From Cohnella sp. OV330 (GTDB taxonomy: Bacteria > Bacillota > Bacilli > Paenibacillales > Paenibacillaceae): 64,000 nt of DNA. The position numbers and the translations under genes were made by a program. The stretch spans positions 62,001 through 126,000 of the forward strand of contig NZ_FOKE01000002.1 in the NCBI RefSeq assembly GCF_900112065.1, written 5' to 3'. The first letter of the stretch is position 1. Every line of letters starts with the position of its first letter. The notes beneath the pieces were generated by a model that was not told the DNA's origin, searched no databases, and worked only from the letters and a program-made list of their open reading frames with translations. Below are positions 61,004 through 64,000 of the stretch, piece after piece.

Positions 61004-61492
61004 TCAGACTAGCTTCTTAAACAGGACTTCAAGCGACATCGATCTTTTTAACGTATTGTAAATCGGAGAATGCGCAAGCGCGCCCGAGCAAAAATCGTCA
61101 AAAGCCTTGTCCTCCAAGTCAACGTATAGAAAGACGGTCACCGTCATTTTGGTTATACGCGGTTCTTCCTCGTACCCTTTGACGCCAACCAGAGATAAAG
61201 GGTTCTCCAGAGAAAGGTTCAATACGCCTTCAATCTCTTCAACGACGGAGCCCCTTTTATTCGGCCGCTCCAAAAACGCCAACAGGATGCTGCTCAACAC
61301 GGATCCCGCGAAATATTCAAGACTGGTGATCGGCTTGTATTCCGAGTCGAAGCTGATTTGCTTTTCGACCTGAACGCTGTTTTTATTCGTATAAATTTTT
61401 ACGGAGGAGAGGTCGGTCGACGTGCCTCTAAAGTTCATATTGAACATCTTGGACTCGTACAAGGCGTTTAATCGGTCATCCGTTCGCTTCAT
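61004..61492 (-). CDS. OsmC-like protein lacking both redox cysteines
   Basis: 162 residues. SLEYFAGSVLSSILLAFLER is the central helix and AHSPIYNTLKRSMSLEVLF corresponds to the C-terminal CPV.NTL motif of OsmC/Ohr proteins, with Ser in place of the resolving Cys. The usual catalytic Cys is not seen either, so peroxide reduction is unlikely. There is no signal peptide. The start at ATG 61492 (AAGGAG upstream) overlaps the end of the MetE-like gene by 17 bases. It is the last gene of the four-gene cluster. The OsmC assignment is by motif similarity and moderately sure. Confidence 0.6.
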   Translation of the reverse strand: MKRTDDRLNALYESKMFNMNFRGTSTDLSSVKIYTNKNSVQVEKQISFDSEYKPITSLEYFAGSVLSSILLAFLERPNKRGSVVEEIEGVLNLSLENPLSLVGVKGYEEEPRITKMTVTVFLYVDLEDKAFDDFCSGALAHSPIYNTLKRSMSLEVLFKKLV

Positions 61493-62669
61493 GATGCTTG
61501 CTCCTTAGCACGGAAGCCGCTTCCGTTAACGAACGAATTTTGCCTGCGATCGTCTCCAGTACATTGACAGGACTATTGGAGAAGGTAGCGAAGCCGCAGT
61601 CCGGATTCAGCCATATTCGATCGACCGGCAGATAGGTCGCAGCCTCTTGCGCTTTTGAGATGATCGAATCTATCGTTTCGACGTCATCCGTACGCGGATT
61701 GATCGCGCCTAGACCGAGCGCCGTATGCGCCGCAATCCTCGGATCGGCCAACAAGGAGCTCAGCTCCCCTGCTCTTGGCGTCGAAAATTCGAGAGTCAGC
61801 AGGTCCGGATTCACCTTGGCGAACAGCTCAAGTAGCGGCGTGTAAGGACCTGTCAACAGCGTGCTTTCGTTTTTGCTCCAGTTGCCCCTGCACACATGCA
61901 AAGAAGCGACGGTCTGGGTTCGGTCGACGTGCGCCATGACCTGTCCGATCAAGGAAGCGGCGAATTCGAGCTCCTCCTTCGGATCCTTTCTCTCGGAGAG
62001 CGCCGCGCACATAAAGGACCTGGGCTTGCCCTCCGTGAATACGACCTCGGTCAATACCGGTTCGTCGAACTGAATCACGTCGACGCCGATGCTCGCCAGG
62101 TTGTCCATCTCTTCCTTCAAGATCCGGACGACATCCTGTCCAAGCTCTTCCTTGCTCCCGTATGCCTGGCCGGAGAGATTCGGAAGCCACATCGATCGGG
62201 TCAGCAGATAGGGACCCGGCAACGTAATCTTGACGGGTTTGTCAGTGAGCCTCTTAAGCATCCGAAGCTCGCTCGCGACGATTTCCCCTTCGTACTGCAG
62301 CCGGCCTACGCAAATCGCGTTTTTAATGCTCACGGCCGGCACGTCGAGCGCGGTCAGCATGTCCTCGAACGCCTTTTTATCGTCGATATATTCGAGCATG
62401 TCGCTCATGCTCATCATTCGAACGCCGCCGATTTTGCCTGCGACGAAGGATACGTAGTTATCCCGCCCCAACTCGCCGCTCGTGACGATATCGATCCCCG
62501 ACGCCTCCTGCAACCGGACGACTTTGCGCGTTTCCGCCTCGATCAGCCGGTCGAAGTCGCTGGGTTCCATCCTTCCGCTTCTCGTCATTCTTAAGGCGCT
62601 AAGCACCTCTTTGGATCTCGGCATGCTTCCGATCAAGGAAGCGGGGAACAGCGGCAACGGCTTTTTCAT
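61476..62669 (-). CDS. MetE-core methyltransferase (cobalamin-independent methionine synthase family)
   Basis: 397 residues corresponding to the C-terminal catalytic barrel of MetE alone; the N-terminal half of true MetE is absent. IDIVTSGELGRDNYVSFVAG, IQFDEPVLTEVVF and zinc-ligand candidates in SLHVCRGNW (His and Cys) and LNPDCGFATF (Cys) follow MetE order, ending in a family-typical helix. It should transfer a methyl group to a thiol, with homocysteine as the usual acceptor. Relatives of this size (YxjG/YxjH, core-MetE) use varied methyl donors. It sits in an operon with a flavoprotein and a binding-protein-like gene. Confidence 0.88.
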   Translation of the reverse strand: MKKPLPLFPASLIGSMPRSKEVLSALRMTRSGRMEPSDFDRLIEAETRKVVRLQEASGIDIVTSGELGRDNYVSFVAGKIGGVRMMSMSDMLEYIDDKKAFEDMLTALDVPAVSIKNAICVGRLQYEGEIVASELRMLKRLTDKPVKITLPGPYLLTRSMWLPNLSGQAYGSKEELGQDVVRILKEEMDNLASIGVDVIQFDEPVLTEVVFTEGKPRSFMCAALSERKDPKEELEFAASLIGQVMAHVDRTQTVASLHVCRGNWSKNESTLLTGPYTPLLELFAKVNPDLLTLEFSTPRAGELSSLLADPRIAAHTALGLGAINPRTDDVETIDSIISKAQEAATYLPVDRIWLNPDCGFATFSNSPVNVLETIAGKIRSLTEAASVLRSKHHEANG

Positions 62670-62701
62670 AGGCTCGATCTCCCGAAGTGAATATAAATAG
62701 G

Positions 62702-62739
62702 GAAAAGAGAAGTAGCGGAGGCTTCCACGCTTCTCTTTT
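62702..62739 (-). other. Intercistronic hairpin in the MetE-core operon
   Basis: AAAAGAGAAG and CTTCTCTTTT form a 10-base stem around a GC-rich loop in the 78-base gap between the PhnD-like and MetE-core genes. The T run after the stem is interrupted by CCC, so it may be a weak terminator or a processing/stability element that lowers expression of the last two genes. Confidence 0.5.
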
Positions 62740-62747
62740 CAACGGTC

Positions 62748-63566
62748 TTAGGTATTCAGAAACTTCAAATATTCGTTGGCTTCGCGCAGCTGCTCGAATC
62801 CCGAGATTCTGCCCTGCACCCATTCCTTCAAGCCTTCCATGTCCATCATCTTCCGGTGGGCTTCGTTGCCGTAGTCCATCCGGTGGAGCACCTGCTGCCA
62901 TTGCGCGAAACTTTCCGTCGAAAAGTCGGGATGCGCCGTGAAAATGCAGTGGTCGAACAATGACGTCGCATCGATGCAGACCAGCTGATTGGCGTCGACG
63001 GTGCCGTCCGCCTTCCACGCCTCCCAGTTCAGATCCAGCGCGACGGCGGCGTCCACCGTTCCCGCCATCAACGCTTTCATCGCGTCCAGCTCTCCGCCGA
63101 CGTGGTCGCCGTGGAGGCCGACGCCGATATCGAACCTTTGCTCCGTATAATCCGCTCCGTATTCAAGTCCATGCCGATGCAGATGATTAATCGGAATCAA
63201 TCGGGCTTGCGGAGAATCGATCGCGCCGAAGCCGATCTTCTTTCCCCTCAGTCCATCTAAATCGTCGATGCCGCTGTCTTTTCGAACGACGAAGACGGTC
63301 TTTCTGTCCCGGTCCGTATCTCTCATAGAACCCATCAGGCACTTGCCGTCCGTCCTTAAGTACGTATCCAGCCAGGCCAGCGGGGAATTCCAGGCGATAT
63401 CGATCTCCCGCTCCATCAAGCCGTCGACCTGTCCCTCATAATCCTTGTAGTAAACGCATTCGATCTCGAGACCTTCCGCTTTGAAAAAATCGGCGATGAT
63501 GCCCCAGATCACGGTAACCCGCGGATCGTAGATAACCGCCCCGACTTTAATCGGATCCTTGCTCAA
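62748..63566 (-). CDS. Cytosolic PhnD-like periplasmic-binding-fold protein
   Basis: 272 residues. It is similar in pattern to phosphonate/phosphite substrate-binding proteins: YYKDYEGQVDGLMEREIDIA, WNSPLAWLDTYLR, KTVFVVRKDSGIDDLDGLRG, KKIGFGAIDSPQA. It starts at TTG 63566 right at the domain, after AAAGGAG, and has no signal peptide or lipobox, so it is not exported. Proteins of this fold without a signal include enzymes such as MqnA/MqnD and Thi5-type proteins. It could therefore be an enzyme or intracellular sensor, not a transporter part. It lies 22 bases after the flavoprotein gene. No permease or ATPase gene is near. Confidence 0.82.
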   Translation of the reverse strand: MSKDPIKVGAVIYDPRVTVIWGIIADFFKAEGLEIECVYYKDYEGQVDGLMEREIDIAWNSPLAWLDTYLRTDGKCLMGSMRDTDRDRKTVFVVRKDSGIDDLDGLRGKKIGFGAIDSPQARLIPINHLHRHGLEYGADYTEQRFDIGVGLHGDHVGGELDAMKALMAGTVDAAVALDLNWEAWKADGTVDANQLVCIDATSLFDHCIFTAHPDFSTESFAQWQQVLHRMDYGNEAHRKMMDMEGLKEWVQGRISGFEQLREANEYLKFLNT

Positions 63567-63588
63567 CCGCGCTCGCTCCTTTGCGTGT

Positions 63589-64000
63589 TTATGGGATCAT
63601 CTGGCCCGTCAATGCTTTACCCAGCCAGACGGTCAGGACGTCCGCGCTTGGCGCCATGATCTGGCCGGCATAGGCGTCCCTGAGCAGTCTTTCGAGCGGA
63701 AGCGCCTTATTGTAGGCTTTCCCGCCGCCGACTCTCATGGCCAGTCTTCCGCATTCGATCGCGGCTTCCGAGGCAAAGATTCTGGCCGATAAAATCTTCG
63801 CCAACGCGTCGGCCTCTCCGCTCGCGCCCGCTCTGGCGGCTTCCATCGTGATGGCCTTTGCGGCTGACGCCTGCTTGTAAATGCTCCCGATATGAATTTG
63901 AACCGTTTCGATATTGGACAACGTGCTTCCATCGGGGTATTTCCTGCCCGAAGCATGTCCGCTAGCGATCTCGAACATATGCAAGGCCGTGCCGCTGTAG
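63589..64000 (-). CDS. Acyl-CoA dehydrogenase-like flavoprotein (5' part outside window)
   Basis: The frame runs to the window edge, so only the C-terminal 136 residues are seen. IHIGSIYKQASAAKAITMEA and ILSARIFASEAAIECGRLAM, then RVGGGKAYNKALPLERLLRD form the C-terminal helical domain of acyl-CoA dehydrogenases, with the typical GGG.Y....PLERL.RD block. Some members of the superfamily are flavin-dependent monooxygenases that act on sulfur compounds (DszC/SfnB type). With a MetE-core and OsmC-like gene downstream, such a role is possible, but the part that shows the substrate is missing. Confidence 0.8.
   Translation of the reverse strand, partial: YSGTALHMFEIASGHASGRKYPDGSTLSNIETVQIHIGSIYKQASAAKAITMEAARAGASGEADALAKILSARIFASEAAIECGRLAMRVGGGKAYNKALPLERLLRDAYAGQIMAPSADVLTVWLGKALTGQMIP

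What the first reader, a model, noticed from the sequence alone, without database searches (positions are those of the whole stretch)
61004..64000. Unusual four-gene operon: flavoprotein, cytosolic PhnD-like protein, MetE-core and OsmC-like protein
The genes are tightly packed on one strand (22- and 78-base gaps, then a 17-base overlap), so they form a unit that continues off the window. The mix is odd. It has an acyl-CoA-dehydrogenase-family flavoprotein, a binding-fold protein that has no signal peptide, a methyltransferase that is only the catalytic half of MetE, and an OsmC-fold protein that lacks the redox cysteines. Together these suggest a small-molecule pathway with an oxidative step, a ligand-holding or enzymatic step by the PhnD-like protein, and a methyl or thiol transfer. 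I know of no described pathway with this exact set. The function is inference.
Basis: partly seen in the sequence, partly recalled or inferred. Interest (0 to 1): 0.72.

Follow-up and report, generated by a model that had tools for sequence, protein, structure and literature searches.

The report
Mobile four-gene methyl/thiol pathway cassette
Four bacterial genes, related to a flavin enzyme, a binding protein kept inside the cell, a methyl-transfer enzyme and a stress protein, stay together as one unit in scattered soil and mouth bacteria and probably form an undescribed pathway that moves methyl groups between sulfur (or selenium) compounds.

Summary
The unit is exactly four genes; the first, ACAD, starts 740 bases beyond the window. 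Of 27 fully visible loci with this OsmC, 26 have ACAD-SBP-MetE-OsmC in order and one lacks MetE, while flanks differ. It is patchy: 5 of 198 genomes of the order, own included. ACAD-SBP is a wider core pair with other partners elsewhere: OsmC alone, a TusA-diiron-like fusion, DoxX/radical SAM proteins (Rv1678-Rv1681 type) or an NhaC-like transporter. The "ACAD" lacks the catalytic Glu (Met-Ala-Pro in 36 of 36), and 7 of 7 operon-bearing Gemella-family genomes lack ETF alpha, so it is no ordinary dehydrogenase. The SBP has no signal peptide and 35 invariant residues, including His-Cys. The MetE-like protein keeps zinc and homocysteine residues plus invariant Cys221; three Gemella-family paralogues have an in-frame TGA (probable selenocysteine) exactly there, beside a YedF-like gene, and another paralogue sits beside TusA/DsrE/TusA-OsmC-like genes. 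Best reading: MetE-OsmC is a homocysteine-dependent methyl/alkyl transferase for a sulfur or selenium compound that ACAD-SBP prepares. Substrates are unknown. A conserved hairpin separates the two gene pairs in 14 of 19 Bacillales-type loci.

The parts
61004..61492 (-). OsmC-like protein, 162 aa, without the redox cysteines (Ser68, Ser142)
   Evidence: (Pfam OsmC 22.4 bits, cut-off 27.5)
61476..62669 (-). MetE-like protein, catalytic half only, 397 aa; zinc ligands H258 C260 E294 C358, homocysteine residues S15 E66 D202
   Evidence: all these residues invariant in 26 of 26 operon sequences; residue roles from PMC7857596 section 11; H258/C260 assigned by the HxC motif (recalled), the others also seen aligned
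62007..62009 (-). Codon TGC of Cys221, invariant in this MetE-like group; in three Gemella-family paralogues the matching codon is in-frame TGA
62706..62736 (-). Conserved intergenic hairpin AGAGAAGCGTGG-loop-CCG-CTTCTCT between the SBP and MetE genes
   Evidence: 1 match in window, 0.00 expected; in this gap in 14 of 19 Bacillales-type loci; no covariation above shuffles; stem mostly invariant
62748..63566 (-). PhnD-like periplasmic-binding-protein fold without signal peptide, 272 aa, relative of the Rv1680 family
   Evidence: (NF049985 216 bits, cut-off 400)
63589..64000 (-). C-terminal part of an acyl-CoA-dehydrogenase-fold flavoprotein, relative of the Rv1679 family; complete gene is contig C16 125589-126740 (L002 7589-8740), 383 aa
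   Evidence: (NF049984 237 bits, cut-off 600)

Best explanation
The operon is a self-contained cytosolic pathway cassette of two modules. SHOWN: ACAD-SBP is a conserved core pair; MetE-OsmC is an overlapping second pair; the MetE-like protein has an intact Zn/homocysteine site plus a Cys221 that is a probable selenocysteine in paralogues; the ACAD lacks the dehydrogenase base. INFERRED: the SBP-fold protein holds or converts a small organosulfur/selenium (or quaternary) compound inside the cell; the ACAD-fold flavoprotein acts on it; the MetE-like enzyme, with homocysteine on zinc, accepts a methyl or small alkyl group from the product (giving methionine and freeing the S/Se part) or runs the reverse; Cys221 handles the S/Se atom; and the cysteine-less OsmC-like protein is a non-redox partner that binds or hands on the product, in the place that TusA-, DsrE- or YedF-like proteins take beside the paralogues.
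For: Order kept in 26 of 27 fully visible OsmC-bearing loci, the other (L056) lacking only MetE; MetE-OsmC frames overlap in 25 of 26 (starts are the first possible ones of the open frame); flanks differ. Zn and homocysteine residues invariant in 26 of 26 (roles). Cys221 aligned with in-frame TGA in 3 of 3 Gemella-family paralogues, two of them near-identical loci, reading on to TAA at codon 395/397; next to a protein matching the C-terminal half of YedF over the cut-off (two scanned; the third 110 of 114 identical positions); all three genomes have tRNA-Sec at 68 bits. The G651 paralogue lies beside TusA-, DsrE- and TusA-OsmC-like proteins (all matches below family cut-offs); its OsmC part matches the window OsmC by profile (probability 96.8, E 3e-10). 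Met-Ala-Pro in place of the Glu motif in 36 of 36 ACADs; ETF alpha in 0 of 7 operon-bearing Gemella-family genomes. Gemella family: operon genomes have MetE (6 of 7 full plus 1 contig-end fragment, against 2 of 8 without operon; Fisher p 0.04, or 0.007 with the fragment; relatedness not corrected). Precedent for selenol/thiol (de)methylation by methyltransferases of the superfamily that includes MetE: PMC10418091 (passages).
Against: No substrate, product or phenotype is known. The window genome and four other genomes of its order show no tRNA-Sec over the cut-off (only 108 candidates per large genome were scored, so this is not conclusive), so selenium itself is probably not required there. 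L056 has ACAD-SBP-OsmC without adjacent MetE. The TusA-like part of the fusion and the window OsmC lack the usual cysteines, which weakens a simple sulfur-relay idea. No sulfur or selenium gene family recurs beside the window-type operon. No SECIS was recognised by Rfam in the paralogue.
Confidence: 0.38

Rival explanations
1. A fifth family of folate-independent 'core' methionine synthases: ACAD and SBP supply an unknown methyl donor and the only purpose is methionine synthesis, as MesX does for MesD.
For: Complete Zn and homocysteine residues without the folate-binding half. [quoted passage not shown] One operon genome, G591, has metH only in three consecutive open frames and no full MetE.
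Against: 18 of 19 Bacillales-type operon genomes have MetH over the cut-off and 12 of 19 full MetE, so it is not needed as sole synthase, though by the MesD precedent this does not exclude it. Cys221/probable Sec and the TusA/DsrE/YedF-like neighbours of paralogues are unexplained.
Confidence: 0.25
2. Oxidative sulfur acquisition: the ACAD-fold protein is a flavin-dependent monooxygenase (SfnB/DszC-like) that cleaves C-S bonds, and the SBP is an intracellular scavenger.
For: The ACAD lacks the catalytic Glu and matches SfnB (83 bits, cut-off 430.9) and DszC (40 bits, cut-off 850) weakly; ETF-alpha-free hosts. A diiron-oxidase-like partner occurs beside ACAD-SBP in L058-L060 (44-49 bits to R2lox models, cut-off 194).
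Against: SBP relatives at 59-69% identity carry source labels of anaerobes (Anaerococcus, Treponema, Lachnospirales), although their ACAD genes were not seen. No flavin reductase in the unit. Does not explain MetE-OsmC.
Confidence: 0.2
3. Thiamin-related pathway: the SBP is a Thi5-like pyrimidine synthase, since the window operon lies near a TPP-riboswitch thi operon.
For: Pfam NMT1/THI5 hit, Thi5 among Foldseek hits, TPP riboswitch at L002 17608-17714.
Against: A phytase-like gene separates them; no thi gene family recurs among the 20 loci compared and no TPP riboswitch reached the cut-off in the other 19 loci scanned. Thi5 TM-scores are low (0.40-0.48).
Confidence: 0.03
4. Ordinary transport operon whose binding protein lost its signal peptide.
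For: PhnD-type fold. An amino-acid permease gene lies beside it in the Gemella-family loci, and an NhaC-like transporter beside the second pair in L048/L049.
Against: No ABC permease or ATPase inside the unit in the 26 four-gene loci; SBP identity of 59-84% across distant bacteria and cleft residues that never vary suggest an enzyme or a fixed ligand.
Confidence: 0.03

Closest known systems
Rv1679 family acyl-CoA dehydrogenase / Rv1680 family SBP-like protein (NCBIfam NF049984, NF049985)
   Same: Best NCBIfam hits of ACAD and SBP; same adjacent order in 3 of 3 actinobacterial plasmid loci, two of which are members over both cut-offs
   Different: Window proteins score far below the cut-offs (237 of 600, 216 of 400). 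Partners there include DoxX-like and radical SAM proteins (Rv1678 and Rv1681 families over cut-off in L031), not MetE-OsmC
Core methionine synthases MesA-MesD (PMC7857596; section 11 and passages read)
   Same: No folate-binding half; zinc and homocysteine residues conserved; MesD also has a partner protein
   Different: Full-length database hit to a solved MesD structure (3rpd), but membership in a Mes family not shown; extra invariant Cys221; partner families differ
Type I mlp gene clusters (corrinoid methyl-selenide/sulfide demethylation, PMC10418091; passages read)
   Same: Methyltransferases of the superfamily to which that paper also assigns MetE; thiol/selenol methyl transfer proposed
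   Different: No corrinoid protein in the window unit; acyl-CoA dehydrogenase, substrate-binding protein, OsmC and TusA are not mentioned there (term search)
OsmC-like selenoproteins (NCBIfam NF041052; UxxT motif in review PMC13188914, passage)
   Same: The TusA-OsmC-like protein of L061 resembles it (33.9 bits, cut-off 95) and is homologous to the window OsmC
   Different: Window OsmC has Ser at that position and itself does not match NF041052 at E up to 1
MqnA/MqnD and Thi5, SBP-fold cytosolic enzymes (recalled; Thi5)
   Same: SBP fold used as an enzyme inside the cell
   Different: No sequence relation shown; different partners

Membership tests
Core methionine synthase (Mes/core-MetE) | Catalytic MetE domain without the folate-binding half | tested here: met
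   397 aa, Pfam Meth_synt_2 over residues 8-364
Core methionine synthase (Mes/core-MetE) | Zinc ligands H-C-E-C and homocysteine residues S, E, D | tested here: met
   Invariant in 26 of 26, roles; H258/C260 placed by motif
Core methionine synthase (Mes/core-MetE) | Belongs to one of the four described families | tested here: inconclusive
   Only a database hit to 3rpd; no tree was built
Core methionine synthase (Mes/core-MetE) | Makes methionine in vivo | not testable with these tools
   MetH over cut-off in 18 of 19 Bacillales-type hosts, which neither proves nor excludes it
Acyl-CoA dehydrogenase | ACAD fold family | tested here: met
Acyl-CoA dehydrogenase | Catalytic glutamate (YEGT motif position; role recalled) | tested here: not met
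   Motif faces APS; Met-Ala-Pro in 36 of 36
Acyl-CoA dehydrogenase | ETF available as electron acceptor | tested here: inconclusive
   ETF alpha in 11 of 11 Bacillales-type operon genomes tested, 0 of 7 operon-bearing Gemella-family genomes
ABC transporter substrate-binding protein | Export signal and linked permease/ATPase | tested here: not met
   First strand at residue 6; none in the unit
OsmC/Ohr peroxidase | OsmC fold | tested here: met
   Foldseek best hits are E. coli OsmC, E 3.6e-7, TM about 0.5, on a model of mean pLDDT 74
OsmC/Ohr peroxidase | Two redox cysteines | tested here: not met
   Ser68 and Ser142; position of the second Cys recalled
Rv1679/Rv1680 families | Curated score cut-off | tested here: not met
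   237 of 600 and 216 of 400 bits
Type I mlp gene cluster | Corrinoid protein encoded in the cluster | tested here: not met
   None of the four genes

The most novel reading that the evidence does not exclude
The cassette is a corrinoid-independent pathway for salvaging methylated sulfur or selenium: a new class of MetE-like enzymes with a catalytic Cys/Sec (Sec in Gemella-family paralogues, a selenoprotein family not found by the searches made here) demethylates a thio- or selenoether onto homocysteine, fed by an ACAD-fold flavoprotein and a cytosolic SBP-fold enzyme that form an ancient, partner-swapping catalytic core shared with the Rv1679-Rv1680 pair.
Probability: 0.25. Interest if true: 0.82.

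Novelty: new variant of a known kind. Interest (0 to 1): 0.66.

Why it matters
A strictly ordered four-gene unit that keeps together while its surroundings change, and that spans Paenibacillus/Cohnella, Bacillus-type genera and the Gemella family, marks a discrete unknown pathway. It gives testable partners to the Rv1679-Rv1680 pair, for which the literature listings seen here show no function. It shows an SBP fold that looks enzyme-like, and points to a MetE-like family with a Cys/Sec residue that would widen the known chemistry of methionine synthase relatives and the list of selenoproteins.

Tried and rejected
Transport operon: rejected, no permease in the unit. Thiamin link through the neighbouring thi operon: rejected, flanks not conserved. 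Need as sole methionine synthase: not supported for 18 of 19 Bacillales-type genomes; G591 left open. Riboswitch control: the riboswitch and T-box hits over the cut-off in the 20 loci scanned (TPP, purine, c-di-GMP-I, glmS, T-box; besides tRNAs and one SECIS_4) lie 1.7 kb or more from the four genes. A viral-contig scan with the SBP alignment found no relative. A phylum sample found the SBP in 1 of 398 genomes, the window's own; a class sample of 17 genomes found none. Rfam recognised no SECIS in the paralogue of L064; a short stem AGTCAAGGTTGAC about 20 bases after the TGA is identical in L063 and L064, but one longer run of identical codons lies elsewhere in that gene, so the SECIS is not proven. 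Covariation of the intergenic hairpin: not above shuffles; the loose pattern also matched once outside the gap in L013 and once in L020. Literature (listings unless said): no paper with 5 of 6 terms OsmC, acyl-CoA dehydrogenase, PhnD, methionine synthase, gene cluster, substrate-binding protein, nor with 4 of 5 terms PhnD, cytoplasmic, acyl-CoA dehydrogenase, radical SAM, Rv1680; listings for Rv1676-Rv1681 names show no paper on function; listings for TusA with R2lox and for MetE with selenoprotein terms gave nothing on this set. Selenoprotein reviews PMC13188914 and PMC9312934 and the deep-Sep paper PMC12013277 contain neither 'methionine synthase' nor 'MetE' (term searches in the main text only). 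The Haft and Gwadz 2023 paper on new selenoproteins is not held and could not be checked. Not tested: selD in the window genome, tRNA-Sec in 13 of the other operon genomes, gene trees.
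Full report
Observation. The window is contig C16:62001-126000 of a 7.47-Mb genome; the nearest MetE match listed is labelled Cohnella hashimotonis, 96%. Taking 20 kb around the window end completes the first gene: ACAD, 383 aa, at contig 125589-126740. Upstream of it lie a phytase-like gene (206 bits, cut-off 440; 218 bases away) and a thi operon with a TPP riboswitch (thi gene names recalled from the sequences); downstream lies pheS (name recalled). 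So the unit is four genes.

Conservation. The OsmC-like protein is rare: 136 proteins found in a word-limited search of 5.8 billion; 5 of 198 genomes of the order, own included. One scan of named genomes with an OsmC alignment gave 17 loci: 16 from Paenibacillus, Cohnella and Bacillus-type genera ('Bacillales-type' here) and one Gemella haemolysans contig end. With the window, G061 and G012 that makes 19 Bacillales-type loci, and 19 of 19 have ACAD-SBP-MetE-OsmC in that order. They were found through OsmC, so the test is whether the other three are there. From the SBP side (15 genomes of the Gemella family and 398 of its class) 14 distinct SBP loci were found: 8 with MetE and OsmC (7 Gemella-family, one of them the contig end where ACAD cannot be seen, and G649), 1 with OsmC only (G651; its contig length equals that of Ammoniphilus oxalaticus P0018), 3 beside a TusA-diiron-like fusion, 2 beside an NhaC-like transporter. 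So of 27 fully visible loci with this OsmC, 26 have the four genes in order and one lacks MetE. ACAD is next to SBP in 35 of 35 loci where both can be seen (these 27, L048, L049, L058-L060 and the plasmid loci L030-L032; in L042 a second ACAD copy lies between). No other gene family occurs in more than 6 of the 20 loci first compared, and immediate neighbours differ. The cassette is kept as a unit in changing surroundings; horizontal transfer was not tested with trees.

ACAD. NCBIfam ranks it nearest to Rv1679 (237 bits, cut-off 600). Aligned to solved dehydrogenases, the YEGT motif with the catalytic Glu (role recalled) faces APS. Met-Ala-Pro stands there in 36 of 36 family members, three actinobacterial ones and three with the TusA-diiron partner included. 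ETF alpha (PF00766) is present in 11 of 11 Bacillales-type operon genomes tested and absent in 7 of 7 operon-bearing Gemella-family genomes. So at least in the latter it cannot hand electrons to a known ETF. Whether it is a monooxygenase, a reductase or redox-neutral is open.

MetE-like protein. The zinc ligands and homocysteine contacts defined in PMC7857596 (section 11) are invariant in 26 of 26 operon sequences (H258 and C260 placed by motif). It is 27-30% identical to the full MetE proteins matched in these genomes and 41-50% to paralogues in other contexts. In G651 the paralogue follows CcdA-like (recalled), TusA-like, DsrE-like and TusA-OsmC-like genes (TusA, DsrE and OsmC matches below family cut-offs). 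A broken copy in G787 follows close homologues of the last three (80, 84 and 66% identical). In the Gemella-family genomes G604, G609 (near-identical loci) and G611 the paralogue has one in-frame TGA exactly where the operon proteins have Cys221, continues to TAA at codon 395 or 397, and follows a protein matching the C-terminal half of YedF (124-125 bits, cut-off 110; L063 and L064, L062 by identity). These genomes have tRNA-Sec at 68 bits. A SECIS was not recognised by Rfam. I regard this gene as a probable selenoprotein; the window MetE itself has Cys.

OsmC-like protein. Its profile matches the OsmC part of the L061 TusA-OsmC-like protein (probability 96.8), which resembles the NCBIfam OsmC-related selenoprotein (33.9 bits, cut-off 95). 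The cysteine there aligns with Ser68 of the window protein. MetE and OsmC frames overlap in 25 of 26 loci (L015 has a 1-base gap, starts as called from the open frame), so the two are probably made together.

Selenium and betaine neighbours. tRNA-Sec reaches the Rfam cut-off in 17 of 26 genomes examined: 11 of 15 Gemella-family genomes and 6 of 11 others, including 3 of 3 with the TusA-diiron-like partner, but not the window genome or four others of its order (in large genomes only 108 candidates were scored, so misses are possible). No background rate was measured. In G600 a glycine/betaine-type reductase cluster starts about 6 kb after the operon; in G652 one lies about 3 kb from TusA-diiron/ACAD-SBP together with a betaine aldehyde dehydrogenase over its cut-off; both have the selenoprotein B gene with in-frame TGA. 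Searching all loci held over 4 kb, the only other such cluster is in L073 (G787), about 15 kb from its broken MetE paralogue. This is a lead, not a rule.

RNA element. A hairpin, AGAGAAGCGTGG-loop-CCG-CTTCTCT, sits between SBP and MetE in 14 of 19 Bacillales-type loci and nowhere else in the window. Without it are L011, L013, L015, L022 (gaps near zero) and L020. Covariation is not above shuffles because the stem hardly varies.

Mechanism and verdict. The sequence shows two modules; the chemistry is inferred. I favour methyl or alkyl transfer between homocysteine and a sulfur or selenium compound prepared by ACAD-SBP. PMC10418091 (passages) gives a precedent of selenol/thiol methyltransferases with a corrinoid protein, which is missing here. 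A core methionine synthase with a new donor is a strong rival, since MesD also works with a partner protein and its genomes often contain MetH (PMC7857596, passages); oxidative sulfur acquisition is another. I found no description of this set in the searches named in Tried and rejected.

Noticed in passing
L062, L063, L064 (unnamed Gemella-family genomes G604, G609, G611): MetE-like paralogue with in-frame TGA at the position of invariant Cys221, next to a YedF-domain gene: probable new selenoprotein family.
   Followed up: partly
window 62706-62736 (-) and the SBP-MetE gap of 13 other loci: Sequence-conserved hairpin of unknown role between the second and third genes.
   Followed up: partly
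L058 11051-12334, L059 11524-12807, L060 10908-12191: Fusion of a TusA-like domain without the CPxP cysteine to an R2lox-like diiron domain (below family cut-off), directly before ACAD-SBP in 3 of 3.
   Followed up: partly
L060, L025/L072 and L073: Glycine/betaine-type reductase clusters (selenoprotein B with in-frame TGA) within a few kb of ACAD-SBP in two genomes and about 15 kb from a MetE paralogue in a third.
   Followed up: partly
L061 1550-4088 and L065 6169-8720: TusA-like, DsrE-like, TusA-OsmC-like and MetE-like genes in one cluster; MetE broken in L065.
   Followed up: partly
L042 6412-8834: Second ACAD gene in tandem; the two are 58% and 47% identical to the window ACAD.
   Followed up: no
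G591 C1:1587897-1591308: metH hit falls into three consecutive open frames in this operon-bearing genome, which has no full MetE hit.
   Followed up: no
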